64,000 bases of DNA from Candolleomyces eurysporus (lineage: Eukaryota; Basidiomycota; Agaricomycetes; Agaricales; Psathyrellaceae), in the NCBI GenBank assembly GCA_027579435.1, contig JANBPK010000779.1:54601-118600 (forward strand), given 5' to 3'. The position numbers and the translations under genes were made by a program. Below the pieces are notes generated by a model. That model did no database searches. It was given only the letters and a program-made list of their open reading frames with translations, and was not told the origin of the DNA. How positions within the stretch are numbered: position 1 is the stretch's first letter; each line of letters begins with the position of its first letter. This document shows, one piece after another, positions 15,313 through 64,000 of the stretch.

Positions 15313-18300
15313 ATGTCTGAAACTACGAGAACTCGTGGAGACAACACTGCCGGCAATTCGGAGTGTCCTACCCCGATTCCGTCTCAACCTGCGACGCCTA
15401 TCGGTGCTAGTGGGAGTCAATCTTCGAGCAGGACCCGCCAGTTCTTGACGAAAGCGGAGAAGAAGATCGATAAGAGCGCTAATGCCTTCAAGCGTCTGGT
15501 TGGTTTGAAGGAGAAGGGAGGGGCAGGGGGTCAAGAGGCTGGATCTGGTGGAGGAGGAACTGCCGATGCTGCTGCCGCTTCAGCTGGATTGGGGACTGCC
15601 ACCCCTCGGAGTGAAACTGGTCAAGAACTCGGCGCAACCGGATTTTTGGTTCTTGGCGTTGCGCAAGAGGCCATTGAAGACAGTCCGGCCGCCCCTCCGT
15701 CAACCCCTGGGCAACTCGAGGACTCTGTTCCGCTCGTGACCGGCGAGGCTACCGAATCTTTGACAACGACTACCACTGTCAGTCCTACTCCCGGAACTCC
15801 CGGCCTCGTAGGAGAAGAGATGGGCAGCGATTCAATTCAAGGGCCCACAGTCTCGTCCCCTACCCCAATTGGTCAAGCAGGCGAAGGCGCGGTAGTTTCT
15901 AGCCCATTGTCGGCCTCCTCCAAGAAGACTTGGGCTATTGTCGCGGGTGCTTTGAAGAAGACGCTCTCCGGAGCGATTCCCTTCATTCCGGACCCTTTCA
16001 AAGGCCCCGCTCAGGTGCTTTTGCAGATTTTCAACATCTTCGAAGTAAGTTGACCCGCTCTTTCATTCGTATCACTTGCTAACAACACATAGAAAGCAAA
16101 GTCCAACAGGGAAGAGATGGAGAATCTGAAGCTGCGATGCAACCTTCTCAATGAAAGTTTAGCGCACGCGTTCGAAAGACGACAAGATAGAGGATCGGAT
16201 GAGCTCGGTGAGAGTATTGGCCGTCTCGTGAAGTAAGTCTGAGTTGTTTCTAGCATAGGGGACGTCTGACTGAGTTCAACGCTAGGGGAATACACGATAC
16301 CCTCACAGAACTGATGGCGAACAAATCGACGGGAATCTCTGCGTATGTGTTGGTGGAAGATAATGCCGAAGCTCTGAAGGAAGCGAACCAGAAAATTGAC
16401 CAGGTCTTGCAATGCTTCTGGGTAAGGGCAGTTCGGCTCCTATAATACACGATACTAATGGTTATGCAGCTCGAGAATCTCATCGCTGGTGCATTGGTCC
16501 TGAGTGACGTCCGCCAGACGGTTAAAGATCAAGAAGGGTGGCTGGCGAAGTTTAGTGTTTCTGTTTACAGGCATTTCAAGGTGTGTACTCTCGCGGGCTC
16601 TTCTATTGGTTTTATATTGACAATCGCACTAGAATGCTGCCCTGGATAAATTGAAGCATGTTCCCGGTGCTGCGTACGATTCGCAGGATCTCGCGAAGGT
16701 TGACGTATGTTTCGAAGGCACCCGGACGAAACTCCTGGCTGGCATTGGGCGCTGGATGAGCGACACGGCTGGAAAACCCATCTATGTACTTGATGGTATT
16801 GCCGGGATCGGAAAATCCACTGTGGCCAAAACAGTGGCCCAGCGTGCTGCTGCTATCAACTCTCTTGGGGTTAGCTTCTTCTTTTCCCGCGACCATGCTG
16901 ATCGACAGCAAGCTTCTGGCTTTGTGCATACTATCGCCTATCAGCTTGCTTGCTGTGATCCATCCTATGGGAAAGCTATAGCTACTGCCATTGACGATGC
17001 TCCTGAAAGCCTACACAAGATTATGGCGCAACAGTTCTCAACTTTTGTGGCTGACCCTCTCTATGCCATGCTCAAAAAGAGAACAACTCCTCTGGTTTTT
17101 GTCTTTGATGCTCTTGATGAGTGTGCACAATCAGATGCCTCAGATATTCTGTCTCTCATAATGACCTCTGTTTCTGGATTGCCCAATGTCAAGGTCTTTC
17201 TTACTAGTCGCCCAGAATTGGTGCTCAGGACTAGATATCAAAATACCTCACTGGCCAGCTGCTTTCATCTTCAAGAAATTGAAGCTATGATTGTAGACTC
17301 TGATATTGGTCAATATCTTGACTACCATCTATCTTCCTCCAGTATACAAAGAGTCTTTGAAGGCATGGAATGTGCTTTTTGGGTGCCTGCAAAAGATCAA
17401 AAAGAACAGCTTGTCAAAGTATCAAACAGGCTGTTTATCTTTGCTTCCACTGCTGTAAAGCTAATGTTGGACCCATATGGACCAGGCCCGGAAGAAACCA
17501 TTGGAAGCATCCTGAACCTTGAGCCAGATCAGACTATGATACAGCTCTACAAAAAGGTTCTAGAAATTGTCTCATCTCCACATAGGCCTAAACTCCCAAA
17601 GCAGTGGAAGTCTTGGCTGGCTAGCTTCAAAACAGCTATTGGTACTATTGTCATCCTTCAGTACCCACTCCCACTAAAGGGACTCTCAATGCTTATGGGT
17701 GTAAAGTCTGATAGCTTATCCTCAATTTTGAGGCACATGCACTCTGTTGTTGCACCTTCTGATGATGGGCCTAACCCAACATACAAAATCTACCACAAGT
17801 CATTTCCTGACTTTCTCACAAATGCTGAAATCTGTCCTGAGGAGTTCTGGATTGAAGAGTCAAAGTATCACTTGCATTTGGCCAAATGCTGTCTACAAAC
17901 CATGAATCAGCAGCTTCAATTCAATATCTGCCAGGTATCTCCTGGAGATTGGTACAAGAGTCTTGCTGATCTGCCAAACCTTGACAAAGAAAAGCTAACA
18001 GAAGAACTCAAGTATGCTATCTGTAATTGGGCCACACATTTGGACAGAAGCAACCTAGAGTTCTTTGACAAGGAAACTGAGCAACTGCTTCATAAATTTG
18101 CTACCATACATCTAATGCACTGGTTTGAAGCTTTGGCATATCTTGGGCAGTTGAATACTGCATTCTCAATTATAAAAACAGCTCTAACTATCTTGGTAAG
18201 TAAATTCAAAGTATCTTCAAATGAATAATATTAATTGTTGTCATAGAAAAGCAATAAAAGCAATGACATGCAAAAGGTTCAAAAAATCTTGCAAGATGGC

Positions 18301-19123
18301 CAAAGATTTATTTGGCTTAATGCTAATATCATCAGATTTTCACCACTGCATCTGTTTTGGTCATGCATCCCATTTGCACCTGAGTTGTCAAGCATATATA
18401 ACTTGTATCCAAATAAGGCTGAAGCAACAAAACTTGTAACTGGCAAGCTCAAATCATGGCCATCAGAACTTGCAGTTTTACATGGCCATCAATCCAGTGT
18501 TAGATATGCTGCTTTTTCACCTGATGGACATAGCCTGGCCTCTGCATCCAATGACAAGACAGTGCGGCTGTGGGACAGCCAGACANGGGGCTGTTCTTGC
18601 AACTCTGGAAGGACATCCTAGTGATGTACGCCATGTTGCCTTTTCACCTGATGGACAAAGCTTGGCCTCTGCNTCTNATGNNNNCACAGTGCACCTGTGG
18701 GACAGNCAGACAGGGGCTGCTCTTGCAACCCTGGAAGGACATTTTGATGCAGTAACCCATCTTGCCTTTTCACCTGATGGACACAGGCTGGCTTCTGCAT
18801 CTCATGACAGGACAGTGCGTCTATGGGACAGCCAGTCACACATGCTTGTGGCAGTCATGCATTACAATTCTCCTTTTGGTCTAAACTTCAAAACACCCTT
18901 GCAATTTTACTTATGCTGCACGGATTCCTCAGCTCCTTCTGGATTATACTCTGTTTTATTCAATGCCTCCTCTGTGGAATCATCTACCACTCCACTTTGC
19001 TTGCTTCCTTCAAACTGGAGTGTCACATCTGTTTCTTTCAATTTCCAATTTTCTTTAGCTGTAGTAGGCCTTTCCAATGGACAAGTTCATGTCCTGGATA
19101 TTTCTCATTTTGCTGTTCTTTGA
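15313..19123 (+). CDS. NLR-like NACHT-WD40 protein, copy 1
   Basis: STAND-class receptor-like protein of the fungal NLR type, about 1,185 aa. Exons: 15313-16044, 16093-16232, 16286-16421, 16470-16580, 16633-18195 and 18247-19123. The N-terminus is disordered Ser/Thr/Pro text followed by a helical segment ([54 protein letters not shown]). NACHT follows: P-loop [13 protein letters not shown] near residue 428 and Walker [14 protein letters not shown] near 526. Three clear WD40 repeats (each ...FSPDG...LASAS...TVRLWDSQ) and a degenerate C-terminal blade end the protein. Compared with copies 2 and 3 it has about 120 extra Ser/Thr/Gly/Pro-rich residues in exon 1 and lacks a short LEELETR-like insert before the P-loop. 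N18586 and the N cluster 18673-18706 break the frame inside the near-identical WD repeats and look like assembly uncertainty. Codon use becomes CpG-poor after about 16,960. A role in non-self recognition or cell death is inferred from the class. Confidence 0.88.
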
Positions 19124-19185
19124 GTTCTGTTTTTTTTCTTTCCATGCCATCTAAATGGGTGTTTGGTTGCATCCTTTACACTTGC

Positions 19186-22030: not shown

Positions 22031-22039
22031 TCTCTCCCT

Positions 22040-27767: not shown

Positions 27768-29001
27768 GATGAGCCCCACAGACGTAGTAGAATTAAAGAA
27801 ATACGTGAAGCGGCTTAATGCTGCTGCCCTTGAATCGAATGAAGAGGTATGTGCGTTACGATTTAGCAGGTCGAAAGCAGTCGTGTATGATATAAAATCC
27901 ATCCCAGGACATTTTGAGCATTTTGGCGATCCTAAAGACCGAATTCAAGATCACAGAGCAAGTCATTAGGGTGAGTGGTTCACGTTCGTTCGTTCGATTT
28001 CTTGTATTAACCTTTTTCTTCCTTCCTTACCGCCATCATCACCATCGCCGTCGTCGCTATCGTCATCGTCCTCCTCTGCCCCTTCTCGCTGCCCCTAGGA
28101 ATCCAAAGTCGGTCTCGCCGTTGGAAAGCTGCGCCAACATGAATCGGCCAAGATCGCTAGCGTAGCCAAAGACCTGGTCAGCAGCTGGAAGTCCGCCGTG
28201 GGCAAGCAGAAGCCCAAGACGCCCGTCAGCGCAACCCCCAAGCCCAACAACACCGCCGGGGCCTCTTCCAAGCCACCTGCTGCGACTGCTGCGGCACCAG
28301 TCCCCCAGAACACAGGAGTTCCGAGGACAGCCAAGAGCGATGGCGTCTCTGTCAACACGGGGGATAAAGTCAGGGATAAGTGCACGGAGCTCGTCTATGA
28401 TTCTCTGGCTTCTGATTCTGGTGCTCGTGCGTATCCATCCTCGTCNTTTTTTCTACCTTGATTTTGGCTGACTGACCCGTCGTGCAGCTACCGACCAAAT
28501 CCTCAAACGAGCTCAAGAAGTCGAGAAAGCGGTATACAAAAACCACAACAACAGCGTCACGGGCGAATACCGCAACAAAATCCGCTCCCTGTTTGTCAAC
28601 CTCAAGGATAAGAACAACCCAGAGCTCCGAGAGGGTGTGGTGTCGGGTGAGATCCTCGCGGAGAAGCTTGTCACTATGACGAGCGAGGAGATGGCGTCCG
28701 AAGAGCAGAAGGCGGCATTGAAGAAGATCAAGGAGGCGAATTTGTTCCATTCGTTCAGTGCGCAGGAGAGTCAGGCGGAGACGGAGGCATTCCAGTGCGG
28801 AAAGTGCAAGCAGGTGAGTGGCTCCTTGTTCTCTTTCTCTCGTTCTCTCTTTGTTCTGACCGGCCGTTTTCCTTTTGCTTTCTTTATTGTGGCGTACAGA
28901 GAAAATGCCGCTACAGACAGGCACAGACGAGAAGCGCCGACGAACCTATGACTACCTTCGTTACCTGCACCGTTTGCGGGAATCGCTGGAAGTTCTCTTA
29001 G
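27768..29001 (+). CDS. DST1: Transcription elongation factor TFIIS
   Basis: RNA polymerase II elongation factor that stimulates transcript cleavage in backtracked complexes. Exons are approximately 27768-27846, 27908-27969, 28100-28424, 28488-28813 and 28900-29001. Domain I is the TFIIS N-terminal helical domain ([37 protein letters not shown]). A Pro/Ala/Thr/Lys linker follows. Domain II is the central Pol II-binding helical domain ([54 protein letters not shown]). Domain III is the zinc ribbon with ligands in FQCGKCKQ and [10 protein letters not shown] and the catalytic acidic hairpin RSADEPMT. It ends KFS. Length is about 300 aa, normal. N28446 is in an intron. The last two exons are the source of three partial copies within the next 6.2 kb. 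Confidence 0.95.
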
Positions 29002-29551
29002 ATTCATACCACTTGTATCATCGTTCCTTCTCCCGTTTCTTTCTTCCTTTCTTCTTGTCAGTACCATCGTCCATCCGCATCCTCAGGTGGACCCATACGT
29101 TCTTGACTCGGATGTAACTAGTACCGGCCACCTCTTTTTGTTCCTGCCCATCCGTCTAATTTATTCTTCGTTTCGCTTCTCTTTTCCTTACATATGAACC
29201 CGACGTACGTTGGGAGAAGTCCACCTTTGATCATTCGAATGAAATTGTCGACGTGCATGAATCCAACCATTCATCATAGACGCAATCTACCTCGCCTACT
29301 GGCTCGAGTACTATTCAAGATGCTCGGGGAGTGGAGACAGCCTGAGGGTCCCAGGTATCTCGCATGTCAAACATCATTATCGTTGTGCCACAGACTCGCT
29401 GGAACCCTCGAGCAGAATTCTCGGCAGTCTTTTGTTTTTCAAGGGAGCAGCGGTGGCACTAGGGAAGGAGGTCGCTAGGTGCTGAGGAGGGGCAACTTGA
29501 TCCATGGCAAGGGGGTACCAGAAGCCGACGAGGTAAAGTCTCTAGGCACTT

Positions 29552-30591
29552 CAGGACTCGGATCGCATCTGCGAGGACGGATTTGAGTGATCGCGGAAGG
29601 GAAGAATAATCGAAGGAACGCCCGTGGATACTCGTACCTTTTGCAACGACTTCCTACGCCGTTCAACGATTTCCTCTGCGAGTTCCCAAAAATCCTTTCC
29701 TGCAGTCCTGCCCATCCACTCGGCCATTCTACCTTGAGGCAAACAACGAAGAGCATACTGATAGCAACTCATATAGTGATTTCCCCCAGGTTTTGCCCAC
29801 CACGCCATGATTGCCCTTGGGTCAACATCGCCGTTGTTGATTGGTTGAGCCTCGTTTTCATTCCTTCGGGAAGGTGATGGGAGCGGTATCCAAATGACGA
29901 AGATGCGGAGAGAGGTTGGGCATAGTGCCAGAATTCCCCTGGCCACCTCAGTGTTCTGCGCGTCGAAGGACGCGTGTTCCACAGACAAGTGGGTGAGGTT
30001 TGAGAGCGAAGAGAGACCATCCCAGTACTTCCACTCATCTTCAGAAGTGTAGAGTATTTCGAGATGAGTGAGGCTCTGGAATATGGGAAGAGAAAAGTCC
30101 ATGCGGCGGCGTCCCTGTGGTAGCAAGTCGACTTTAGCAAAGAGGGAAAGTCGGGAGGGGGACAATAAGTGGGAGGACGAGAAGAGTTCTCGCATTGCAT
30201 CGCTTTCGAAGGAGGGCCCCCAGCTGACAAGCACTCGAACGCCTGTGCATGCTCTGAGGATGCTGATGACTTTCGACTTCATGGAAAGGGTTAATACTGC
30301 CAGAAGCTTGACATGTTGCGCGAAATATTCCGCCGATTTACTGGTATTCGGGTCGGTCAATGTACGATGGAGCGGTTCTATGACCGAATAGCCTAAGAGG
30401 CGAATGCTACGGTAGATGATAGGTTCTACCCTGGAGGCAAGCTATGAGGCGGGGCGGTGGTAGTAGTAGCGCAGAACGACGCACCATGGTCGAACCTGCT
30501 TTGATACAAGAGCGCAGGACAGGCCGTCACCAGCCTCTGCGGCGAGCTCGAAAACAGCACGGGCAATGTCCAGAGGTAGGTCGGAGAACAT
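29552..30591 (-). CDS. F-box-like protein, paralogue A
   Basis: Agaricomycete F-box-like protein of unknown target. The start at 30591 reads MFSDLPLDIARAVFELAAEA, then LSCALVSKQVRPW, which has the Leu-Pro...Ile...Val-Ser pattern of a short F-box. A 55-60 bp intron (donor GTGCGTCG, acceptor CCTCCAG) joins W to VEPIIYRSIRLLGYSVIEPL. The large exon contains the Leu-rich segment LPIFQSLTHLEIL, LSSLSNLTHLSVEHASFD and LCPTSLRIFVIWIP, and ends DFWELAEEIVERRRKSLQK. A last intron precedes a tiny exon coding MRSES. About 310 aa, no premature stops. It is 160 bp head-to-head with the TFIIS relic at 30.7 kb and tail-to-tail with the full TFIIS gene. If the F-box is functional it would recruit SCF ubiquitin ligase; this is inferred. 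Confidence 0.75.
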
Positions 30592-30689
30592 GGTGAGCGA
30601 AGAAATCAAGCTTAATCAAGCACCGCCTTCATTGATTGACCCACACAGAACATCTCGTGAGAGCCCCGTTCGTTGAATTGTCTACATGA

Positions 30690-30912
30690 TCCTTCAACCT
30701 GAAGGATAAGAACAGCCCAGACCTCTGAGACCAAAATCCCGTTTGTTATTATGACGAGTGAGGAGATAACGTCGGAGCTGCAGAAGGCGGTATCGGAGGA
30801 GTAGAAGGCGGCGGCGGAGGATATTAAGGAGGACAATCTGTTCCATTCGTTGAGTGGACAGGAGAGTGAGATGGAGACGGAGGCGTTCCAGTGCGGGAGG
30901 TGCAAGCAGGTG
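30690..30912 (+). pseudogene. Truncated TFIIS 3' copy
   Basis: Reads MTSEEITSELQKAVSEE from 30751, then a stop (TAG) and, in the same frame, AAEDIKEDNLFHSLSGQES and [12 protein letters not shown] up to a GT donor. The second zinc-ribbon exon with the acidic hairpin is deleted: sequence jumps from the intron (TTTGTTCTTCTGG) directly into the TFIIS-type 3' flank at about 31,010. With a stop codon and no second Cys pair it cannot fold a zinc ribbon. Confidence 0.8.
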
Positions 30913-31499
30913 TCCAGCCCCTTCCTCTCTTCCTCTCTCCCTTTCTTTCTTTCAAGTTGAGGGCGGAATGGATTCTGACTCTCCTTTGTTTTTGTTCTTC
31001 TGGTCAGTACCATCATCCATCCATTCTCATCCTCAGGTTGTCCCATACTTTCTTGACTCGGATGTAACTAGTACCGGCCACCTCTTTTTGTTCCAGCCCA
31101 TCCGTCTAATTTATTCTTTGTTTCGCTTCTCTTTTCCTTACAGATAAACCCGACGTACGTTGGGAGAAGGCCACCTTTGTTCATTCAAATGAAATTGTCG
31201 ACGTGCGTGAATCCATCCATTTATCGTATACGCAATTTACCTTGCCTACTAGCCCAAGTACTATTAAGATGCTCGGGGAGTGGAGACAGCCTGAGGGTCC
31301 CAGGTATCTCGCATACGAAACATCATTATCGTTAGGCCACAGACCCGCTGGAACCCTCGAGAAGAATTCTCTGCAAGATCGTTCTACAAGGGAGCGGTGG
31401 CGCCAGGGAAAGAGGTCTCTAGGTGTTGAGGAGGAGGGGCAACTTGATCCATGGCAAGGGATGTTTGAGGCTACCGAGGCAAAGGAGTCTCCAGATACT

Positions 31500-32533
31500 T
31501 CAAGACTCGGATCGCATCTGCAAGAACAAAGTTGAGTGAGTGCAGAAGGAAAGAAGGATCGAAGGAACGCCCGTACCTTTTGCAGCCGCTTCCTACGCCG
31601 TTCAACAATTTCCTCTGCGAACTCCCAAAAATCCTTTCCGGTAGTCTTGCCCATCCACTCGTTCATTCGACCTTCGGAAGAATAACGAAGAGCATATTCG
31701 TAGCGACTCATATATTCATTTCCCCCAGGCTTTCCCCACCACGCCATGATTACCCTTGGGTCAACATCGCCGTTGTTGATCATGGCTGCATGAGCCTCGT
31801 TTTCACCCCCACTGGAAGATGCCCAGGATGGCACCCAAGCGACGAAGATGCGGAGAGAAGTCGGGCATAGTGCCAGGATTCTTCGGGTCCATTCAGTATA
31901 CTGCGCATCGAAAGACATAGGTTCCACAGATAAGTGGGTGAGGTTTGAGAGCGAAGAGAGACCATCCCAGTATTTCCACCCATCTTCAGAAGGACAGAAT
32001 AGTCCGAGATGAGTGAGGCTCTGGAAAATGGGAAGAGAAAAGTCTATGCGGCGACGTCCCTGTGGCAGCAAGTCGGCTTCGGCAAGGATGGAAAGTCGGG
32101 AGGGCGACAAGTAGGAGGACGAGAAGAGTTCTCGCATTGCATCGCGTTGGAAGGAGGGCCCCCAGCTGACTAGGACTCGAACGCCTGTGCATGCTCTGAG
32201 GATGCTGATGACTTTCGACTGCATGGCAAAGGTTGTTACCGCCAGAAACTTGACATGTTGCGCGAAATATTCCGCCGATTTACTGGTATTCGGGTCGGTC
32301 AATGTACGATGGAGCGGTTCTATGACCGAATAGCCTGAGAGGCAAATGCTACGGTAGATGATAGGTTCTGCCCTGGAGGCAAGCTATGAGGCGGGGCGGT
32401 GGTAGTAGTAGCGCAGAACGACGCACCATGATCGAACCTGCTTTGATACAAGAGCGCAGGACAGGCCGTCACCAGCCTCTGCGGCGAGCTCGAAAACAGT
32501 ACGGGCAATGTCCAGAGGTAGGTCGGGGAACAT
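31500..32533 (-). CDS. F-box-like protein, paralogue B
   Basis: Same gene structure as paralogue A. The start at 32533 reads MFPDLPLDIARTVFELAAEA, then a short first intron, the main exon (IIYRSICLSGYSVIEPLHRT, LPIFQSLTHLGLFCPSEDG, LSSLSNLTHLSVEPMSFD, DFWEFAEEIVERRRKRLQK), a last intron and the terminal MRSES exon ending at 31500. No frame break was seen. The 3' flank down to about 31,010 is near-identical to that of paralogue A (29,070-29,320), showing that gene and flank were duplicated together. It differs from A mainly in the polar middle part (SWASSSGGENEAHAAMINNG). Function is inferred only from the F-box-like N-terminus. Confidence 0.75.
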
Positions 32534-32672
32534 GGTGAGGGAAGAAATCAAGCACCGCCTTCATTGATTGACCCACACAGAATCTCGTCAGAGCCGCGAT
32601 CGAATTGACTAGTGGACCATGTCTCGATTCAGGGTGTATGAAGAAAGAAAGGGTAGTATGGGTGGCATAAAT

Positions 32673-33121
32673 CTACGAGAATTTCCAGCGATTCCCGCAA
32701 ACGATACAGGCAACGAAGGTGGTCATAGGTTCGTCAGCGCCCCTAGTCTGCATCTGTAGGTAGCGGCATTTGTTCTGTACGCCACACAACAAAATAAAGG
32801 AGAGTCAGAATCCATTCCACCCTGAACTTGGTAAAAAAAAAAAAGGAAANGAGGAAGAGAGGAGGGGGCCGGCCCNACCTGTTTGCACCTCATGCAGTGG
32901 AACGCCTCCGTCTCCCCGTCTCCCCACGGCTCACTGAGCGAATGGAACAGACTGCCCTCCGTAATCTCCGCCGCTGCCGCCCCCTGCTCCTCCTCCGCCG
33001 CCTTCTGGTCCTCCGCCGCCGCCTTTTGCTCCTCCGATACCGCCTTCTGGTCCTCCGATACCGCCTTCTGCTCTTTCGATACCATCTTCTGCTCCTCCGA
33101 CGTCATCTCCTCACTCGTCAT
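32673..33121 (-). CDS. TFIIS C-terminal mini-gene 1 (linker and zinc ribbon)
   Basis: A small two-exon gene derived from the 3' end of TFIIS. It begins at the Met that lies inside domain II of the parent ([12 protein letters not shown]). It then expands a Glu/Gln/Lys motif ([19 protein letters not shown] and variants, about seven 5-6-residue units) and continues [22 protein letters not shown]. The intron holds two Ns (32850, 32876). Exon 2 reads [20 protein letters not shown] and [13 protein letters not shown], then stop. All four zinc ligands and the Asp-Glu pair of the acidic hairpin are kept. About 114 aa, with no polymerase-binding domain II. The start is 144 bp from the divergent F-box paralogue C. 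Whether it is expressed is unknown, but the preserved frame and ligands argue against simple decay. Confidence 0.6.
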
Positions 33122-33265
33122 AATAACAAACGGGATTCTGGTCTCAGAGGTCTGGTCTGTTCTTATACTTGAGGTTAAATAAAGGACAGTGTGGACAGTT
33201 CGAACGCAGCTAGGTGTTCTGTGTGGGTCAATCAATGAAGGCGGTGCTTGATTTCTTCCCTCACC

Positions 33266-34284
33266 ATGTTCTCCGAACTACCTCAGGACATTGCCCGTAC
33301 TGTTTTTGAGCTTGCCGCAGAGGCTGGTGACGGCCTGTCCTGCGCTCTTGTATCAAAGCAGGTTCAATCATGGTGCGTCGTTCTACGCTACTACTACCAA
33401 CCCCCCANTCTCATACCTTGCCTCCAGGGTAGAACCTATCATCTACCGGAGCGTTTGCCTCTCAGGCTATTCGGTCATAGAACCGCTCCATCGTACATTG
33501 ACAGACCCGAATACCAGTAAACCGGCGGAATATTTTGCGCAACATGTCAAGTTTTTGGCGGTATTAACCTTTGCCATGGAGTCGAAGGTCATCAACATCC
33601 TCAGAGCATGCACAGGCGTTCGAGTACTCGCCAGCTGGGGGCCCTCCTTCGGAAGCGATGCAATGCGAGAATTCTTGTCGTCCTCCTTATCGCCCTCCCG
33701 ACTTTCCATCGTTGCTGAAGCCAACTTGTTGCCACAGGCACGCCGCCGCACAGATTTTTCTCTCCCCATTTTCCAGAGCCTCACCCATCTCGAACTACTC
33801 TGTGTTTCTGAAGATGAGTGGAAGCACTGGGATTGTCTCTCTTCGCTCTCAAACCTCACCCACTTGTCTCTGGATTATGCGACTGTCGATTTGCAGAACA
33901 ATGAAGGGACTAGAAGAGCTCTGGCTCTATGCCCGACTTCTCTTCGCATCTTCGTCATCGGGATTTCGCCCTGGGCATTTTCCAACGGGAATGAAAGCGA
34001 GGCTCAGGCAATCAACAACGGCGATGTTGACCCAAGGGCGATCATGGCGTGCTGGGAAAAGCCTGGGGGAAATGTCCGTATGAGTCGCTATGAATACGCC
34101 CTTTGTTGTTCTTCTCAAGACAGAATGAACGAGTGGATGGGCAAGACTACCGGAAAGGATTTTTGGGAGCTCGCAGAGGAAATCGTTGAGCGGCGTAGGA
34201 AGTGGTTGCAAAAGGTACGAGCGTTCCTTCGATCCTTTCCGCACTCACTCACCTTTTTTCTTGCAGATGCGATCCGACTCTTGA
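33266..34284 (+). CDS. F-box-like protein, paralogue C
   Basis: Plus-strand member of the family. The start reads MFSELPQDIARTVFELAAEA, LSCALVSKQVQSW. The first intron (donor GTGCGTCG, acceptor CCTCCAG) contains N33408. The main exon has VEPIIYRSVCLSGYSVIEPL, LPIFQSLTHLELLCVSEDE, LSSLSNLTHLSLDYATVD, LCPTSLRIFVIGISPWAF and DFWELAEEIVERRRKWLQK. A final intron is followed by MRSDS and a stop at 34284. It is intact. It is inverted relative to A, B and D, and shares a 144 bp gap with TFIIS mini-gene 1 on its left. Downstream flank to about 34,780 is the same TFIIS-type flank as in units A and B. Confidence 0.75.
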
Positions 34285-34835
34285 AGTGCCTGGAGATTCC
34301 TTCGCCTCGGTGGTCTCGGACCCTCATTTCGAACATCACTCAGCATGGATCGAGCCCCCCCNTCCTCAGCACCTAGCGACCTCCTCCCCTGGTGCCACTG
34401 CCGCTCCTCTATAAAACGGAAGATTTTGCAGAGAATTCTGCTTGAGCGTTCTGGCAAGTCTGTGGCCCAAGGATAGCGATCTTTCGTATGCGAGATTCCT
34501 GGGACCGTCGGGCTGTCTCCGACGCCCCACGAGCATCTTGAGCCACTGGGCAAGGTAGACGGCGTATATGATGAATGGATGTACATCGACAATTTCATTT
34601 GAATGAACAAAAGTAGCCTTCTTCCAACGTATGTCGAGTGTATACGTAAGGAAAAAAAAAAAGAAACGAAGAATAAATTAGACGGACGGGCAATAACAAA
34701 AAGAGGTGGCCGGTACTAGTTACATCCGAGTCAAGAACGTATTGGTCCACCTGAGGAGGCGGATGGACGATGGTACTGACAAGAAGAAAGGAAGAAAGAA
34801 ACGGGAGAAGGAACGGCGATACAAGTGGTATGAAT

Positions 34836-35195
34836 CTAAGAGAACTTCCAGCGATTCCCGCAAACGGTGCAGGTAACGAAGGTGGTCATAGGTTCCTCAG
34901 GGCCCCTCGTCTGTGCCTGTCGGTAGCGGGTTTTGTTCTGTACGCCACACAACAAAAACAAAGGAGAGTCAGAATCCATTCTACCTGGAACTTGAAAGAA
35001 AGAAAGGAGGGAGGAAGAGAGGAAGGGGCCGCCCACCTGCTTGCACCTCCCGCACCGGAACGCATCCGTCTCCACCGTACTCTCCTGCACACTCAACGAA
35101 TGGAACAGATTGTCCTCCTTAATATCCTCCGACGCCGCCTTCTGCTCCTCCGATATCGCTTTCTGCTCCTCCGACGTCATCTCTTCACTCGTCAT
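34836..35195 (-). CDS. TFIIS C-terminal mini-gene 2, altered acidic hairpin
   Basis: Second stand-alone TFIIS tail: [49 protein letters not shown], an intron of about 100 bp, then [20 protein letters not shown] and [13 protein letters not shown]. The four zinc-ligand Cys are present and the frame is open, giving about 86 aa. The parent hairpin R-S-A-D-E-P-M-T reads R-G-P-E-E-P-M-T, so the catalytic Asp is replaced by Glu and the preceding Ala by Pro. The upstream side is shared with a fungalysin relic rather than an F-box gene. It may be a young pseudogene or a non-cleaving zinc ribbon. Confidence 0.55.
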   Translation of the reverse strand: MTSEEMTSEEQKAISEEQKAASEDIKEDNLFHSLSVQESTVETDAFRCGRCKQVGGPFLSSSLLSFFQVPGRMDSDSPLFLLCGVQNKTRYRQAQTRGPEEPMTTFVTCTVCGNRWKFS

Positions 35196-35504
35196 AATAA
35201 CAAACGGAATTCTGGTCTCAGAGGTCTGGGTTGTTCTTATCCTTGAGGTTGAACGACCGTGTCCCGTGCTTTCTTGAGACCACCACCAGTCTCGATCATA
35301 CGACCTCCCTTTTCGTTGCGGCCCTTCCATCTAATTTATGCACTGTTCTTTCTGTTCGTTACATCCAAACATACGTACGATGGAAGAAAGCCGCTTTTGT
35401 TTAGTACTCGGTCAAACTGTCTACGCAGATGAATTAATCCATCAGTTACTCTGCATAAGTACCTAATTGAATCGACCTGCTGGATCCCTGAACCGGAATT
35501 CCCT

Positions 35505-36260
35505 GCAACATGACATCTATTACAGACGAGGCCAGGCTCTCTCGAGTTGTCTTCTGATATCTATCCAGGTACCTGTGAGTCCCCTGGCCCTGCCTCAGCG
35601 TCTGAACGGCTCCAATGTCGTACTTTAAGTATGTCCTCTTGCCCTCGTCAAACCATCACCTCGCAGTCGGCCTCCGGTCTTGTCTCCGACTGCCAATATA
35701 AAGTGAACGCTGCAAAGACCAACGCGTTCTACGCCATCAACGCCGTCCACGATATTGCTGACTGATATGGGTTCACAGAGAGGGCGTTCAACTTCCAGAC
35801 CAATAACTTTGGAAAGGGTGCAAGTGGGGGCGATAGGGGTGTTGACGAGCGTCCAGGATGGCCCTCGGACGAACAAAAGCTAGCTTTATTACGCCTTTCG
35901 AGTAGTACGTCTGTTCTTTAAGCCGTAGTTTTTCTGGTGCGAGTGCTGGTCCACGATCTCGCTTTCGAGCGGTCAGTCCTGAACTCGCCGTATGCACGTC
36001 TGGGCCCCCACTGCTACCGCGAGTAGCTTGCTTGCCTCTGCGTCAATTCTGCCTCGCGCTGATCGTGATGGTGTCATAGCCCAATCGCGATGGTTCGTTG
36101 AGCAACGATATCATAGTCCGATTCAAACGCTACCTTTGACTGCAGCGAGGATTCCGAGTCCTTTGTGCAGATCTGGAGGAAGACCTGGCAACCTTTTACC
36201 CCCCCGACTTCTGGGTCAAGAACGCTGGGTAGTCGAAGGCGAACTCGAGATGGGTGAGTG
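35505..36260 (+). pseudogene. Fungalysin relic with repeated upstream block
   Basis: The frame [20 protein letters not shown], then a TGA stop where the intact gene reads YRYGFTE, then AFNFQTNNFGKGAS, matches the intact fungalysin at 44.6 kb. At about 36,080-36,120 SPIAMVR*ATIS-type sequence corresponds to [13 protein letters not shown] but breaks off before the HEMTH motif. The upstream block (TGACATCTATTACAGACGAG, then SASERLQCRTL) is the same as at 61.2 kb and, inverted, at 20.7-20.9 kb. The relic lacks the signal peptide, propeptide and catalytic site. Confidence 0.75.
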
Positions 36261-52173: not shown

Positions 52174-55100
52174 TTAAGCAACAGAGAAACGGGAAATATC
52201 AAGAGTATAAACTTGGCCATCTCTAAGGACTACTGCAGCTGAAGTAAATGTAGAATTAAATGAAACAAATGTGACATTCCAGTTTGGAGGGAACAAGCAA
52301 ATTGGAGTAGCACAAAATTTCACAAAGGAATTGGTAAATTGAACACAGTATAATCCAGAAGGAAAGGAGGAGGCTTGGGAATATGTGTAAAAAAGCAAGG
52401 GTGTTTTGGGGTTGAGACCAAAAAAATACATGTGCTGCAAAGTTACTAAGAGAGTATGTGTCTGACTGTCCCAGAGGCACACTGTGTTGGAGTCCTGAGA
52501 TGCAGAGGCTAGCTTTTGTCCATCAGGTAAAAAGGCAACATGGGATAATGGATAAGGTCCTTCCAAAGTTGCAACAGCAGCCCCTGTCTGGCTGTCCCAC
52601 AGGCGCACTGTCCTATCATAGGATGCAGAGGCTAGCCTCTGTCCATCAGGTGAAAAAGTAACATGGNTTCACTCGAGCAAAATGACCTTTCAGAGTTGCA
52701 AGAGCAGTCCCTGTCTGGCTGTCCCACAGGTACACTCTGTTTTCTTTAGTTGCAGAGGCCAGCNTCTGTCCATCAGGTGAAAAGGNAACATGCATCACTG
52801 CAGAAGAATGTCCTTCCAGAGTTGTAAGAGTGGCCCCTGTTTGGCTGTCCCATAGGCGCACTGTTGTGTCATCAGATGCAGAAGCCAGCCTGTGTCCATC
52901 AGGTGAAAAGGCAACATGGGTTACTGCATCAGAATGCCCCTCTAGAGTTGCAAGAGCAGCCCCTGTTTGGCTCTTCCACAGGCGCACTGTGTTGTCCCAA
53001 GATGCAGAGGCCAGTCTTTGTCCATTAGGAGAAATTGCAACACATCTCACTGATTGTTGATGACCACGCAAAACTGCAAGTTCTAGTGGCCATGATTGAG
53101 CCCTGCCAGTTCCAGGTTTCACCCCTTTAGCGGTATTTGCATACAAGTTATGTATCCTTGATAACTCAGGTGCAAATGGGATGCATGACCAAAACAGATG
53201 CAGTGGTGACCATTTGATGATACTGACATTAAGCAAGATAAATCTTTGGCCATCTTCCAATGTTTTTTCAACCTCTTCTGTGTCATTAGTTTCATTACTT
53301 TTCTAGGATAGCAGTTAATATTATCCATTTATAAATCCTTTGAATTTGCTTACCAAGGTTGTCAATGCTGCCTGCATAATTGAGAATGCAGCATCCAATT
53401 GCCCAAGATATGCTAAAGCTTCAAACCAGTGCATTAGATGCACAGTAGCAAACTGTTTAAGCAGTTGTTGGGATTCTTGGTCAAGGAACACAAGGTTGCT
53501 TCTGCCTAAATGTGTAGCCCAGTTACAGGCAGCATACTTTAGCTCTTCAGTTAGCTTTTCTTTGTTGAGTTTAGGCAGATTGGCAAGCCCCTTGTACTGA
53601 TCTGCAATAGGCACTTGGCAGATATTGAAGCAAAGTTGTTGATTCATAGTTTCCAAACAGCATTTGGCTAATTGCAGGTGATGTTTTGACTCTTCAATCC
53701 AGAACTCCTGAGGACAGACATCAGCATTGGTGACAAAGTCAGGAAATGACTTGTGGTGAATTTTATATGCTGGATTAGGCCCATCATCCAAAGGTGCCAA
53801 AACTGAGTGCATGTTGCTTAAAATTAGCTCCAAGTCTGATGATCCCAGTTGCAGAAGCTTTTCTAGTGCTCCAATAGAGACAGGGTACTGAAGAACAATG
53901 GTAGCACCAACAGCAGTTTGAAAATTGGCCAGCCACAAGTCCCAATCTTTGGATGGCCTGAGAATGTCTGTAGGTGTTGCAATCTCAAGAACCTTCTGAT
54001 AGAGCTTGACCATTCCTTGCTTTGGCTCCAAAGCCAAGATGCTATTCAGGGCTTTTTCTGGACCCAGTCCCTGGCAGCTTAATATAAGCTTCAAAGCAGT
54101 AGAGGCAAAAATGAACAGCCTGCTAGATACACTAACAAGCTGTTCTTTTTGAGGCTTTTTAGGTACCCAAGAATTCCATTTGGTGCCCTTAAACACTTTT
54201 TGAATGTTTGAAGGGGACAGATGGTAATCTAGATACAACCAAATGTCTGAGTCTACAATCAGTGCTTCAATGTCTTGAAGATGAAAGTAGTTAGCCAATG
54301 AAGTGCTTTGGTATTCAACCCTGAGCACCAGTTCTGGCCGAGTAGTGAGAAACACCTTGACATTGGGCAATTGGGAGACACAGGTTATAATGAGAGATAG
54401 GATATCTGACCCATCTGGCTGTGCACACTCATCCAGAGCATCAAACACAAAAACAAGAGGAGTTACTCTTTGCTTCAGCATGCCATTGAGAGGCTCAGCC
54501 ACAAGAGTACAGAACTGATGTGTCATGACCTTGTGTAGGCTATCAGGATGATCATCAATGGCAGTAGCAATAGCCTTTCCATAGGATGCATCACAGCAAG
54601 CAAGCTGATATGCAATAGTATGCACAAAGCCAGCAGCTTGCTGCCGATCAGCATGATCCCGAGAGAAAAAGAAGGTAGCCCCAAGAGAGTTGATAGCAGC
54701 AGCGCGCTGGGCCACTGTCTTAGCCACGGTAGATTTCCCAATCCCAGCAATACCATCAAGGACATAGATAGGCTTCCTAGTCTCCAGTTCTTCCAGAGCG
54801 GTGTTACTCATCCAGCGCCCAATTCCAGCCAGAAGCTTCACCCGGGTGCCTTCAAAGCATGGGTTGACCTTTGCAAGTTCGTGTGAGTCATATGCTGCAC
54901 CAGGAACATGCTTCAATTTATCCAGGGTGGTAGACTATCACAATTAATCATCATTGTCAATACGAAATCGGTGCAAGAGTCTGCCAGTGTACGCACTTTG
55001 AAATGGTTGTCAATAGTTGCACAGAGTCTCATCATCCACCCTTCTTGGTCTTTGACTGTCTGGCGAACGTCACTCAGGACAAGAACGCCTGCAATGAGAT

Positions 55101-55921
55101 TCTCAATCTAAACCATAAAATCACCATTAGCCGCCACAATTTCGAGAATAGAAGCCCGTTTACCCAAAAACATTGCAAGATTTGATCCATTTTCTGGTTG
55201 GCATCCTTTATGACTTCAGAGTTATCCTCCACCATCACATACGCAGCTATTCCCGTCGAATATTTCACCACCGTGGCCAGAAAGGTATCGTGTATTCCCC
55301 TAGCGTTAACCTCGGTCAGATGTTCCCCGAGCTTGACACAAAAAATTAGACATACTTGACGAGGCGGCCGATACTCTCTTTCAGCTCAGCCGACAGTAAC
55401 CTCTCATCTTGCCCTTTGATCACATTTACAATACTCTCGTTGAGGAGGACACAACGCGCCTTCAAATCCCCCATTTCTTCTTTGTTTGATTTCGCTTGCT
55501 GTACATCGTTAGCAAAGGTTATGAGTTGAAAGGCAGACCAACCTACCTCGAAGACGTCAATAATCTTCAAAAGAGCTTCAGCGGGGCCTTTGAACGGACC
55601 CGGGATGAACGGAACAGCTCCCGCAAGAGTCATTTTCAAAGCTCCCACAACAATGGCCCAGGTTTTGTCAGTAGAGGCCGCGGTAGAGGCTCCCGAAGCC
55701 TCACGGCTTCCCGTTCCCTTCTCCTTCGGCCTGGCCAGACGTCTGAGGGCATCGATACCCTTATCAATCTTCTTCTCCGCTTTGGCCAAGAACCGGCGGG
55801 TCCCGCTCGAAGGTCGACTCTCACTAGCACCGACGGGCGTCGCAGTTCGAGACGGAATCGGGGTATTACGCTCCGAATCGCCGGCGGTGTTGCCTCCATG
55901 AGTTTCCGTAGCTCCAGACAT
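52174..55921 (-). CDS. NLR-like NACHT-WD40 protein, copy 2
   Basis: Paralogue of the gene at 15.3 kb with the same exon plan. The start at 55921 reads MSGATETHGGNTAGDSERNT; the helical segment has KTWAIVVGALKMTLAGAVPF and FKGPAEALLKIIDVFE, then QAKSNKEEMGDLKARCVLLN. The NACHT exon (about 54,930-53,355) has [20 protein letters not shown] and [20 protein letters not shown]. It carries the ALEELETRKPIY insert shared with copy 3. Five WD40 repeats are visible (FSPDG...[18 protein letters not shown] and variants), more than in copy 1, followed by the family C-terminal blade ending LDISRFSVA. Ns at 52667, 52764 and 52786 interrupt the repeat region; the frame slips at 52667 by assembly doubt. N55971 lies 50 bp before the start. 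From about 54,680 to 52,150 the sequence is CpG-poor, as in copy 1. Confidence 0.88.
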
Positions 55922-56029
55922 TGTGTTTTCTCGATTGGAAAGTTGAGTTGAATCGCAAGGGTTCGCAGTGNATGATAAGTCCAAGTGGTGGTAGCGGTTC
56001 GGAGAGGAGAAAGAGGCAATCGACAAGCA

Positions 56030-57140
56030 TCAATGGTGTGTGAGAGCCCGCTCGAGACCTCGTGACCTTCAACTCGAAAATTGGGACGGATATTCAGGCG
56101 AAAAGAGAACAAGTAGTCCATCCAGCAAAAGGAGATCGATATATCTCGTAACAACGTGACCCGTAAGAATACATACACACATGAAGGACGTTGACGAGAA
56201 CTGCACGGCGGACGCACAAGAAGAACAGAAAATTCCTAGCATTTATATAAAGACCCCTACTCGCAAACGCCCTCCACAACGAGCACCTGTTCGCACCGCC
56301 GCGGCGGTTTTTATTAGCCTGAACCTAGGCGTGAAGGGCTTGTGCGACTTTCCAATCGGAAATGAAAAGGAAGAATAGAATGATCACCCGGTTAGTAATG
56401 GGTCAAGAAAGCCGAAAAGTAGAGGGCGACGTACAAGTGGGGTTGCACGGCTGCAGAGCCAAAGAGTCGAAGAAAGATGAGCGAAGATTATGTCGCCTCT
56501 AGGGTCATCGGGATTGAATGCCGCAAGGGAGAAGCCGTACCAGCCCACAAGTGCAGCCTAGGCGGTGTGCAGCCCACTCACCGGTGCCTCGCAAAGAACG
56601 GAAGACGGGTCAGCATCGATGTACGAGTCAACCGACTGCTCAAAAGAAGATCCGACATACGGTGGAGGGTAGTCGGCCCAGCAAAGTTGTAGCAACGAAG
56701 AGGATACCAATGGGGTTGTTGGCGACATATTCAACAAAGACGTAATTCTGAATGGTCGCGGACTCCTGCTAGCCAGAAGAGAAACCTCATACGGTGAGGT
56801 CGGAGCTGAACGCTGAACATTTGCTCCGTTCTCAGCAATTTGTTGCTGACGCTACGTCGGTCGGTGCCTGCGCATACCTATCCTTACGCTGCTGGGCTCC
56901 TGTGCCGATTTTGCGTTCAGGATATGTGCTTTCTTCAAGCCAGTCATGCCGGTAATTTGCTCCTTGGACAGCCAATCTATAATCCATAATATTGTCAGTA
57001 TTAAATTGCATGGGCCTTGACGCTCCTTCCAACATTGAACAGCGACATCCGTTTCGAGGTTGACGTTCCCCAAGTGGCATCAAAGCTCGGGTACATAGCA
57101 GTTGAGACACCACCAGCGATATATTGGATCAGGTACGAGC
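56030..57140. other. Upstream region of NLR copy 2, no gene seen
   Basis: The 100 bp next to the NLR start (positions 55,922-56,050, minus strand) are nearly the same as the DNA before NLR copy 3 (62,590-62,714), including CTCTCACxCA, TTGCCTCTTTCTCCTCTCC and CTTGGACTTATCAT. Farther out, 56,050-57,140 has only short frames. Confidence 0.45.
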
Positions 57141-60845: not shown

Positions 60846-60884
60846 CTGGATGTTGAATCCAACACTCACATGTATACCGTACTA

Positions 60885-61157: not shown

Positions 61158-62460
61158 ATGACATCCATTCAAGACGAGGTCGTGTTTGATGCTTATCCAG
61201 GCCTACCCCTGCCCCCAGCTTCTGAAAGGCTTCAACATAGTACTCTATATACTCTTGCCCTCGTCAAAGCATCACCTCGCATTCCGCCCCCGGCCTCGTC
61301 TTCGATTATATCTACAACATATCCCAAGCGCCTTCGACTACTAACAATATCACCTACTGATATGGGTTCATCGAGCTGGTGTTCTACTTCCAGACTTTGT
61401 AAAGGGTGGAAGTGGGAACGATAGGCCCGGGGACGAACAAAGCTAACTTTGCTACATCTTCCGAGTACGTCTGGCTTTTCAAGCTGTGACTTTTCTGTGC
61501 AAGTGCTGATATACGATCTCTCTAGTGGTCAATCGTGAACCCACCTATGTAGGCCGGTTGTGAGTAGCTTGCCCCTGCATTAATTCTACCACTTGGCGCT
61601 AATCATAATGGTATGCGTAGCCCAATTGCGATGGATTGTTGAGCAACGATATCATCGTCTACGAGATGACCCACGGTATCACTAGCTGAGTGGAGGTCCC
61701 GGGCACTGAAACCCCCGAGATTGATGAGGATTGGTCTGATGCTCCCGCCGAGTGAGTTGCTACACTTTCTTCTCTTGCCATTTCTTTGTTGACGTTGATG
61801 TGACGCTTCGCAGATGGTCTCGACCATCCAGGACTACGTCCTTGCTGACTACGTCGCCAACGACCCCGCTGTTATCAGGACTCAACTAGCAATACCGCTG
61901 TCGTTCCCTCTTCGTTACTTCAACATGGCCGAGCTGACTGCCGTCCACCGTGTGTCGAACCTTCTATTGAGCAGTAGGTCGACTCGCACATCGATGCTGA
62001 CTCGTCTCCCGTTCTTCGTTAGTAGCTTTGGGTGAGATCCGGGCTGACGTGCTGCACATCTTGTACGCCGCACGTGTGGGCTTGTACGGCTTCTCCCCTG
62101 CTGCGTTCACCAATCTCGATGGTCGTAAAGGTGACATCGTCAATGCTCACCTTTCTTCAACTCTTGGCTCTTTAGCCTTGCAGCCCCACTTGTACCGCCC
62201 TCTTCTTTTCGGCTTTCTTGACCTCCTTACTAACCGGGCGCTCATCTTCTATTTTTCCTTTTTCTTTTCGACTGCATAATTGTACAAGTCCTTGAAGGCC
62301 GGATTCAGGCTCAAAATAACGCTATGGAGGTGCGAATATGCGGTTGTAAAGGGCGTTGGCGAGTAGGGTCTTGGTGCAAACGCTAGGAATCTTCTGTTCC
62401 TTTTGGACGTCCGCCGTGCAGTTTTGTCAACGTCTTGTCGCCCCCTTCAGTCGCTAAATT
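61158..62460 (+). pseudogene. Fungalysin relic, the longest of three
   Basis: It starts with the shared block MTSIQDEVVFDAYPG and SERLQHSTLYTLALVKASPR, then broken frames that follow the intact gene: LSNDIIVYEMTHGITS then stop (HEMTH has become YEMTH), EIDEDWSDAPAE for [64 protein letters not shown] and FTNLDGRKGDIVNAHL. The first zinc-ligand His is replaced, there are several stops, and the C-terminal exon is frame-broken (about 62,280-62,460). The order is collinear with the functional gene, so it derives from a full or half-length duplicate with introns retained. Confidence 0.8.
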
Positions 62461-62714
62461 TGTGTGTATTCTTACAGGCCGTATCGCTAAAATATATCTC
62501 AGTCTGGATGAACTTGTTCTCTTTTCGCCTGATTATCCGTTCCAATTTTTGAGTTAAGCGCCCAGGTCACGAGGCTCCGAGCGGGCTCTCACGCACAGCA
62601 CTGATGATCACCGATTGCCTCTTTCTCCTCTCCTTGAACCGCTACCATCACTTGGACTTATCATCCACTGCGAAATCTTGCGATTCAACTCAACTTTCCA
62701 ATCGAGCAAACACA

Positions 62715-64000
62715 ATGTCTGAAGCTACGGAAACTCATGGAGGCAACACCGCCGGCGATTCAGAGCGCAATACCCCGATTCCGTCTCGCACTGCGACACC
62801 CGTCGATGCCAGTGGGAGTCGACCTTCAAGCGGACCCCGCCGGTTCTTGGCCAAGGTGGAGAAGAAGATCGATAAGACTATCGATGTCTTCAAGCGTAAA
62901 GTTGGGCGACAGGAGAAGGGAACGGGAAGTCATCGGGCTTCGGAAGCCTCCACCACGGCCTCCACTGGCAAAACCTGGGCCATTGTTGCGCAGGCTTTGA
63001 AAATGACTCTTTCGGGCGCTGTTCCGTTCATCCCGGATCCGTTCAAAGGCCCCGCTGAGGCTCTTTTGAAGATGATCGACGTCTTCGAGGTAGGTCGGTT
63101 TGCCCTTCAATCCGTATCCCTTGCTGACGACACATAGCAAGCGAAATCGAACAAAGAAGAAATGGAGGATCTGAAGGCGCGTTGTGGTCTCCTCAATGAG
63201 AGTATAGTGAATGCGATTAAAGGGCAAGACGAGAGGTTACTGTCGGCTGAGCTGAAAGAGAGTATTGGCCGCCTGGTCGAGTACGTCTGATTTCGTGTCA
63301 AGCTCGGGAAATGTCTGACAGAGGTTAACGCTAGGGGAATACACGATACATTTCTGGCTACGGTGGTGGAGTATTCGACGGGAATGGCTGCGTATGTGAT
63401 GATAGAGGATAACTCTGAGGTCGTAAAGCAAGCCAACCAAAAAATGGATCAGATCTTGCAATGTTTCTGGGTAAATACGCTTCAATTCTTTAAATTGTGG
63501 TGGCTAATGGTGATGTTATGATGTAGATCGAGAATCTCATTGCAGGTGCTCTCGTCCTGAGTGACGTTCGCCAGACAGTCAAAGACCAAGAAGGGTGGAT
63601 GATGAGACTCTGTGCTACCATCGACAACCATTTCAAAGTGCGTATTCTGGTAGACTCTCCCTTTGGTATTTTATTGACAATCTGATCAATTGTGACAGTC
63701 TGCCACCCTGGATAAATTGAAGCATGTTCCTGGTGCAGCATATGACTCGCATGAGCTCGCAAAGGTCAACTCATGCTTTGAAGGCACGCGGGTGAAGCTC
63801 CTGGCTGGCATTGGCCGCTGGATGAGCAACACCGCCTTGGAAGAACAGGAAACTAGGAAACCCATCTATGTCCTTGATGGTATTGCTGGGATTGGAAAAT
63901 CTACCGTGGCCAAGACAGTGGCCCAGCGTGCTGCTGCTATCAACTCTCTTGGGGCTACCTTCTTCTTTTCGCGGGACCATGCTGATCGACAGGCATGCTG
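62715..64000 (+). CDS. NLR-like NACHT-WD40 protein, copy 3 (cut by window edge)
   Basis: The start MSEATETHGGNTAGDSERNT is nearly the same as copy 2; helical segment KTWAIVAQALKMTLSGAVPF, FKGPAEALLKMIDVFE; then QAKSNKEEMEDLKARCGLLN, AYVMIEDNSEVVKQANQKMD and [20 protein letters not shown]. The NACHT exon begins [20 protein letters not shown] and reaches the P-loop [20 protein letters not shown] at about 63,880 before the window ends. Exon borders are identical to copies 1 and 2. All of the visible part is CpG-normal; whether the downstream part is CpG-poor as in the other copies cannot be seen. It is 6.8 kb from copy 2, the two starting back to back. Confidence 0.88.

What the first reader, a model, noticed from the sequence alone, without database searches (positions are those of the whole stretch)
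15313..64000. Three-copy NLR-like family with a shared N-terminal helical domain
Copies at 15.3, 52.2-55.9 and 62.7 kb share exon plan, P-loop, Walker B and promoter-proximal DNA. The domain before NACHT (KTW-I-V--ALK-TL-GA-PFIP-PFKGP then a Leu-rich helical stretch with N-E-E---L) recalls the four-helix cell-death bundles (MLKL-NTD/HeLo-like) found on other fungal NLRs. I infer, but cannot prove, that it is an executioner domain. Copy 1 alone has about 120 extra Ser/Thr/Gly-rich residues in this region, and repeat number differs between copies, both signs of rapid diversification.
Basis: partly seen in the sequence, partly recalled or inferred. Interest (0 to 1): 0.75.

Follow-up and report, generated by a model that had tools for sequence, protein, structure and literature searches.

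The report
Mushroom immune receptors, large MLKL-like family
Three genes in this stretch of a mushroom genome belong to a large family of immune-type receptors whose front end looks distantly like known cell-killing domains; the type is known, but this branch has so far been seen only in one genus and carries traces of selection for recognising changing targets.

Summary
The window is the end of a 118.6-kb contig of Candolleomyces eurysporus (Agaricales). The three NACHT-WD40 genes are real: shared exon plan, GT-AG introns of 48-62 nt, P-loop, related upstream DNA. They are not a three-copy family: the exon-3 segment of the N-terminal domain occurs at 79 or more loci in the genome, five on this contig. 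Copy 3 is cut by the contig end; Ns break the WD40 frames of copies 1 and 2. The domain gives weak but recurring Pfam MLKL_N matches (7 of 24 members, best E 2.7e-5, none over the cut-off; copy 2's domain gave none). Two AlphaFold runs failed (pLDDT 46 and 50), so the fold is not shown. Best reading: an expansion, seen only in Candolleomyces, of basidiomycete MLKL-like (BaMLKL) NLRs that kill the cell on non-self recognition. Added here: WD40 repeats vary most at positions matching the Podospora het-d/het-e sites; a conserved N-terminal peptide and basic amphipathic helix precede a linker of 16-197 residues; about 150 bp upstream of the ATG are more alike between paralogs than silent sites. 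The long linker of copy 1 is common in the family.

The parts
15148..15312 (+). copy 1: conserved upstream block (about 165 bp before the ATG)
   Evidence: mean pairwise identity 0.80-0.92 per 30-bp bin from -150 to -1 over 20 paralog loci; 15150-15312 finds 21 genome places, itself included, all upstream of family loci
15313..15516 (+). copy 1: conserved N-terminal peptide and basic amphipathic helix (residues 1-68)
15517..15921 (+). copy 1: low-complexity linker, 135 residues
   Evidence: residues
15922..16580 (+). copy 1: MLKL-like N-terminal domain, spread over exons 1-4
   Evidence: exons 15313-16044, 16093-16232, 16286-16421, 16470-16580; MLKL_N E 0.0082, 16.1 bits, cut-off 27
16633..18195 (+). 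copy 1: NACHT exon (P-loop at 16795-16818)
   Evidence: NPHP3_N here, E 1.8e-26
18247..19123 (+). copy 1: WD40 exon, three repeats as assembled, then a C-terminal tail; Ns, one at a frame change
55922..56086 (-). copy 2: conserved upstream block (one N at 55971)
55718..55921 (-). copy 2: N-terminal peptide and amphipathic helix
54997..55669 (-). copy 2: MLKL-like N-terminal domain, spread over exons 1-4
   Evidence: exons 55921-55547, 55498-55356, 55299-55164, 55107-54997; assigned by similarity to copy 1, no Pfam match of its own
53354..54934 (-). copy 2: NACHT exon (P-loop at 54754-54731)
   Evidence: NPHP3_N E 2.1e-23, NACHT E 6.8e-10
52174..53302 (-). copy 2: WD40 exon, five repeats as assembled, then tail; Ns at 52667 (frame change), 52764, 52786
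62550..62714 (+). copy 3: conserved upstream block
62715..62918 (+). copy 3: N-terminal peptide and amphipathic helix
62967..63637 (+). copy 3: MLKL-like N-terminal domain, spread over exons 1-4
   Evidence: exons 62715-63089, 63138-63280, 63335-63470, 63527-63637; by similarity
63699..64000 (+). copy 3: start of the NACHT exon (P-loop at 63879-63902), cut by the contig end

Best explanation
The three genes encode tripartite NOD-like receptors of the basidiomycete MLKL-like (BaMLKL) type with NACHT and WD40, members of a large family so far seen only in Candolleomyces. Proposed mechanism: the WD40 propeller is the sensor, its top loops contacting a variable partner (non-self or pathogen-altered self); binding lets the NACHT ATPase oligomerise; this clusters the N-terminal helical domains, which insert into or permeabilise a membrane and kill the cell. 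A conserved basic amphipathic helix near the N-terminus may hold the receptor at anionic membrane, with a low-complexity linker of 16-197 residues as tether. Shown here: architecture, family size, purifying selection on domain and NACHT between the copies, variation concentrated at the sensor loops. Inferred: membrane action, cell death, the tether role, the ligand.
For: Gene models and architecture. MLKL_N matches: copy 1 E 0.0082; 7 of 24 pieces, best E 2.7e-5 in the sister subfamily; 3 of 6 whole proteins, P0062 3.8e-4, P0064 9.9e-4, P0040 0.044; 0 of 3 reversed controls. In the five matches printed the profile part is much the same (from position 4-13 to 101-109 of 142). In copy 1 and in the sister protein the match begins within the second predicted helix, leaving one helix before it, as described for BaMLKL (sections read); helix order from low-confidence models. 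dN/dS between copies 0.16-0.20 in the domain, 0.04-0.21 in NACHT. WD40: in 20 N-free units the five most variable of 38 positions (31, 15, 12, 33, 13) all fall among six that correspond to Podospora hypervariable sites, hypergeometric 1.2e-5 for this register; pN/pS 1.53 at the five, 0.48 at the 32 positions outside the six. The spacing 13-15-31-33 equals that of codons 7-9-25-27 reported under positive selection in Podospora (passages).
Against: No MLKL_N match reaches 27 bits; 17 of 24 pieces have none at E<=1; copy 2's domain alone has none; an unrelated family matched as many members. HMM-HMM with one MLKL_N protein of this genome: score 22.3 against 12.5 +/- 2.3 for 100 shuffles (maximum 21.8), but probability 3.6%, and shuffles of a SesA-like control reached 28.3, so such a score can arise by chance; the SesA-like protein itself equalled its shuffles. 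Profile searches of solved structures gave no E below 0.2. Structure models too poor to use (pLDDT 45.6, 49.8); their PDB searches gave no match at E<=0.001 and no MLKL or HeLo entry among the 50 rows printed of 61 and of 151. At the five WD40 sites the ranges over 60 bootstraps overlap (pN 0.40-0.52, pS 0.18-0.45), and 6 of the 20 units come from one locus, L012. No expression, interaction or death data.
Confidence: 0.6

Rival explanations
1. The N-terminal domain is a Goodbye-like or other helical signalling/oligomerisation domain, related to the MLKL bundle but not an executioner; it passes the signal to a separate effector.
For: The domain does not begin the protein: 84 residues precede it in copies 2 and 3, 203 in copy 1, about 310 at most in the tree rows. 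In the literature an extra N-terminal helix marks BaMLKL and a longer extension marks Goodbye-likes, whose death activity is unproven.
Against: The profile that recurs is MLKL_N; no Goodbye, NACHT_N or HeLo profile appears for the first member or among the 25 families printed (of 25, of 29).
Confidence: 0.25
2. A helical domain of unknown, genus-specific origin; the MLKL_N matches reflect helix composition.
For: All homologs that bear an organism name are Candolleomyces (39 of 39; 9 of the 9 so named among 22; 5 of 5); matches are below cut-off; fold prediction failed.
Against: E 2.7e-5 against 24,736 families (24 pieces were scanned), much the same profile part in several subfamilies, reversed sequences do not match.
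Confidence: 0.12
3. Decaying paralogs: the broken WD40 frames are real and many copies are pseudogenes.
For: Frame breaks in the WD40 exons of copies 1 and 2 and of several paralogs, some with no N in the stretch read (L013, L017, L026).
Against: dN/dS far below 1 in domain and NACHT; N-free paralogs with open WD40 exons and a like C-terminal tail exist (L019, L022, L024, L027); in copies 1 and 2 the frame changes lie at Ns.
Confidence: 0.1

Closest known systems
BaMLKL NLRs of Basidiomycota (Wojciechowski et al. 2022, PMC9815663; sections 12 and 28 and passages seen)
   Same: MLKL-related helical domain with one extra helix in front, N-terminal to a NACHT
   Different: Pfam match below threshold; long N-terminal extension with a conserved peptide and amphipathic helix, not mentioned in the parts read; whether these proteins were in that study was not checked, nor how often BaMLKL goes with WD40
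Podospora anserina HNWD genes het-d, het-e, het-r (PMC1805685 and PMC12222747, passages seen)
   Same: NACHT and WD40 repeats of 42 residues; variation concentrated at loop positions of the same spacing; arrays that short reads assemble badly
   Different: the N-terminal domain there is HET (TIR-related); strong within-gene homogenisation of repeats is not shown here
HET-S/HELLP HeLo domains and the MLKL four-helix bundle
   Same: proposed mode of action
   Different: no match to a solved structure of these obtained here

Membership tests
Fungal NLR (NACHT-WD40) | NACHT with P-loop and Walker B | tested here: met
   copies 1 and 2; copy 3 cut before Walker B
Fungal NLR (NACHT-WD40) | C-terminal WD40 repeats | tested here: met
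   copy 2 WD40 E 5.1e-28; copy 1 repeats; copy 3 not readable
BaMLKL / MLKL_N | profile match to MLKL_N at the curated cut-off | tested here: not met
   best 24.1 bits against 27; copy 1 16.1 bits; copy 2 none
BaMLKL / MLKL_N | sub-threshold match repeated over members | tested here: met
   7 of 24, best E 2.7e-5; 4 of 20 (tied with an unrelated family); 0 of 3 reversed controls
BaMLKL / MLKL_N | four-helix bundle with an extra helix in front (hG) | tested here: inconclusive
   helix order agrees, pLDDT 45.6 and 49.8
BaMLKL / MLKL_N | membrane targeting and cell death | not testable with these tools
   needs experiment
WD40 allorecognition NLR of the het-d/het-e type | repeats over 85% identical within a gene (threshold of PMC4986451, passage, on amino acids) | tested here: inconclusive
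   mean DNA identity 0.80 over 18 within-gene pairs, but 15 of these come from one locus, L012; 0.86 over 172 between-gene pairs
WD40 allorecognition NLR of the het-d/het-e type | hypervariable top-loop positions with a non-synonymous excess | tested here: inconclusive
   positions coincide; pN/pS 1.53 but bootstrap ranges overlap
WD40 allorecognition NLR of the het-d/het-e type | polymorphism between strains and an incompatibility phenotype | not testable with these tools
   one genome only

The most novel reading that the evidence does not exclude
A genus-limited receptor arsenal in which the MLKL-like killer domain is tethered by a linker of evolving length to its own N-terminal membrane-binding helix, and in which a shared upstream element keeps the paralogs under one regulatory switch while their WD40 sensor loops diversify: a mushroom counterpart of the het-d/het-e allorecognition repertoire, built on an MLKL-like instead of a HET effector.
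Probability: 0.25. Interest if true: 0.65.

Novelty: new member of a known kind. Interest (0 to 1): 0.42.

Why it matters
Somatic incompatibility and intracellular immunity of mushrooms are less understood than those of ascomycetes (a listed abstract, PMC8229728, says models of incompatibility rest on ascomycetes). A large family with an MLKL-like front end, variable sensor loops and a common upstream block gives concrete candidates: loops to resequence between strains, a domain to test for killing, an element to test for co-regulation.

Tried and rejected
Structure prediction of the domain (alignments of 20 and 24 rows, led by copy 1's domain and by a sister-subfamily member, P0063) gave pLDDT 45.6 and 49.8; PDB fold searches on these models were run for the record and are not used as evidence for the reading. 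Sequence searches of solved structures gave only chance-level matches. SesA as the family: one genome match below cut-off at another place, HMM-HMM score equal to shuffles. Gene conversion of the coding 5' end, suspected from the low dS of copies 1-2 there (0.21), is not supported over 190 locus pairs: silent divergence 0.295 there against 0.246-0.365 in three other segments. Domain-only proteins (P0040-P0047) as free executioners: P0042-P0044 seem to end in read-through of the intron after the domain, so gene-model error is as likely; left open. The MLKL_N gene on C1144 is a different protein; I saw no NACHT in the 3.8 kb read, but only 320 residues were scanned. Rfam and tRNA scans of the window were empty.
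Full report
Identity and place. The window is G000:C1060:54601-118600, the last 64 kb of a 118,600-bp contig of a 65.9-Mb assembly. A database protein on a contig of that length, named as from Candolleomyces eurysporus, is identical to copy 1 over nearly all of its 532 residues (P0018). The species is in Psathyrellaceae, Agaricales. The window end is the contig end, so copy 3 is cut technically.

Gene structure. Copy 1: 15313-16044, 16093-16232, 16286-16421, 16470-16580, 16633-18195, 18247-19123 (+). Copy 2: 55921-55547, 55498-55356, 55299-55164, 55107-54997, 54934-53354, 53302-52174 (-). Copy 3: 62715-63089, 63138-63280, 63335-63470, 63527-63637, 63699-64000 and beyond (+). All introns are GT..AG, 48-62 nt. 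Pfam finds WD40, NPHP3_N and NACHT in copy 2. Ns at 18586-18706 and 52667-52786 lie in the WD40 arrays; those at 18586 and 52667 go with a frame change. Exon 6 differs by exactly 252 nt, two repeats, between copies 1 and 2. N-free paralogs also differ by 42-residue steps: 178 residues from the first repeat to the stop in L024 and L027, 220 in L019 and L022. Repeat-number variation in the family is therefore likely, but the numbers for the window copies wait for long reads.

Family size. The NACHT exon of copy 1 gives 44 matching rows in the genome, itself included, some loci giving two rows. An exon-3 query of 45 residues (a blend) gives 86 rows, 79 of them separate loci at E <= 2.4e-7; five are on this contig (15965, 27511, 70887, 109764, 117936). 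Some may be alleles kept as separate contigs; this was not resolved. NPHP3_N alone has 1340 first-look candidates; only 150 were scored, all over the cut-off. In the protein database the domain search gave 39 NLRs, 24 from C. eurysporus and 15 from C. aberdarensis, and 22 short proteins, 9 with an organism name, all Candolleomyces. A sister-subfamily search gave five, four from C. eurysporus and one from C. efflorescens, a species absent from the first 39. The tool needs shared 5-residue words, so distant genera can be missed.

The N-terminal domain. Pieces of 20 members: MLKL_N in 4, best E 0.0082, which is copy 1; RNR-II_ins_dom, unrelated, also in 4. Pieces of 24 members, overlapping that set and including the sister subfamily: MLKL_N in 7, best E 2.7e-5, profile positions 4-108 of 142; next family in 3. 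Whole proteins: P0062 3.8e-4, P0064 9.9e-4, P0040 0.044; P0065, P0066 and P0035 none at E<=0.1. Copy 2's domain: none at E<=1. Three reversed members: no MLKL_N. None over the curated cut-off. HMM-HMM against an MLKL_N protein of the same genome (L031, MLKL_N E 6.1e-9) scored 22.3, above all 100 shuffles of that protein, but with probability 3.6%, and shuffles of another helical protein reached 28.3. In copy 1 and P0063 the match starts after the PFKGP or PIPG turn and leaves one predicted helix in front, which fits the description of BaMLKL with helix hG (PMC9815663, sections 12 and 28 read, passages). Structure predictions were poor and cannot decide. I call it MLKL-like by sequence trend, not a proven member.

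Selection. Between copies, dN/dS is 0.16-0.20 in the domain, 0.04-0.21 in NACHT and 0.37-1.05 in the first 68 codons. WD40 repeats: 37 units were found by a strict pattern; I kept 20 from 12 loci, dropping units with N and, after seeing them, first repeats and diverged types. These 20 vary most at positions 31, 15, 12, 33, 13, where codon-pair differences are nearly all non-synonymous (173 to 1 at position 31). Averaged over mutational paths pN/pS is 1.53 at these five and 0.48 at the 32 positions outside the six Podospora-equivalent sites. In a looser set of 47 units, which mixes repeat types, pN exceeds pS only slightly at positions 12, 13, 15 and 31 and not at 33, and other positions vary too. 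Podospora repeats have selected codons 7, 9, 25, 27 flanking constrained codons 8 and 26 (PMC1805685, passages), or high dN/dS at 10, 11, 12, 14, 30, 32, 39 in a later numbering (PMC12222747, passages). The spacing 2-16-2 fits 13, 15, 31, 33 here, with V14 and D32 conserved (19 of 20 each). The register was set by this spacing, so the hypergeometric 1.2e-5 should be discounted by the number of possible shifts. Within-gene unit identity (0.80, 18 pairs) lies below that between genes (0.86, 172 pairs), but 15 of the 18 pairs are from L012, so homogenisation is not decided.

N-terminal module and linker. Before the domain lies a conserved stretch, M[SA]E.T...NTPIPSRAATP then a basic helix. Over 20 rows of the window's clade mean identity is 0.65 in the N-terminal stretch, 0.49 in the linker (aligned residues only) and 0.76 in the domain; between the two clades 0.41, 0.17 and 0.54. 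Of 46 sequences beginning M[SA] (the only ones tested), 42 have an 18-residue window with a hydrophobic moment above 300 shuffles at p<=0.05; in three of these (P0032, P0043, P0052) the window lies in the domain itself, and copy 1 is counted twice, as P0018 too; P0027, P0029, P0030 and P0040 fail. Linker lengths run from 16 to 197 (20 rows). On the tree of 39 rows the change between long and short N-terminal parts is forced at least four times by well-supported branches. The sister subfamily has another N-terminus. That the helix binds membrane is inference.

Upstream block. In the 20 of 22 loci where the ATG was found, the 150 bp before it are 0.80-0.92 identical by 30-bp bins, falling to 0.64 and 0.49 further out (alignment). 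Silent-site divergence over 20 loci, 19 of them the same, is 0.25-0.37 (one row there, L012, rests on a permissive match), so the non-coding block is more conserved than silent sites. Copy 1's block finds 21 places in the genome, itself included; compared by eye, all 21 lie upstream of, and on the strand of, family loci, 0.6-1.2 kb from exon 3, once 2.6 kb. A shared promoter and leader under constraint is the simplest reading; conversion restricted to it is not excluded. These loci were picked by NACHT similarity to copy 1, so this describes the window's clade.

Verdict. Real, well-formed NLR genes; a large family seen only in Candolleomyces rather than three copies; effector identity likely but unproven; sensor variation of the het-d/het-e type suggested. 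Literature searches used; none of the titles listed there deals with NLRs of Candolleomyces, which is a statement about these searches only.

Noticed in passing
window 28700-37540: A second local gene family: four copies of an LASRVEPIIYRS...LHRTLTDPNTSK-type protein in tandem and inverted repeats of 67-90% identity.
   Followed up: no
window 54634-56703 and 61907-64000: Copies 2 and 3 form a head-to-head inverted duplication of 2.1 kb at 83% identity.
   Followed up: partly
L031:663-3467 (G000:C1144): An open frame of 935 residues carrying the one MLKL_N match that a whole-genome scan found, over the cut-off; no NACHT seen in the stretch read.
   Followed up: partly
whole genome G000: 1340 first-look candidates for NPHP3_N in six frames (150 scored), which hints at a very large NLR repertoire or at separately assembled alleles.
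   Followed up: no
L012 (G000:C1174:33723-41322): A paralog with at least nine WD40 units and its upstream block about 2.6 kb before exon 3, against 0.6-1.2 kb in the other 20.
   Followed up: no
P0042, P0043, P0044: Annotated short proteins that seem to end in read-through of the intron after the domain; intron retention would give a domain-only protein, but gene-model error is as likely.
   Followed up: no
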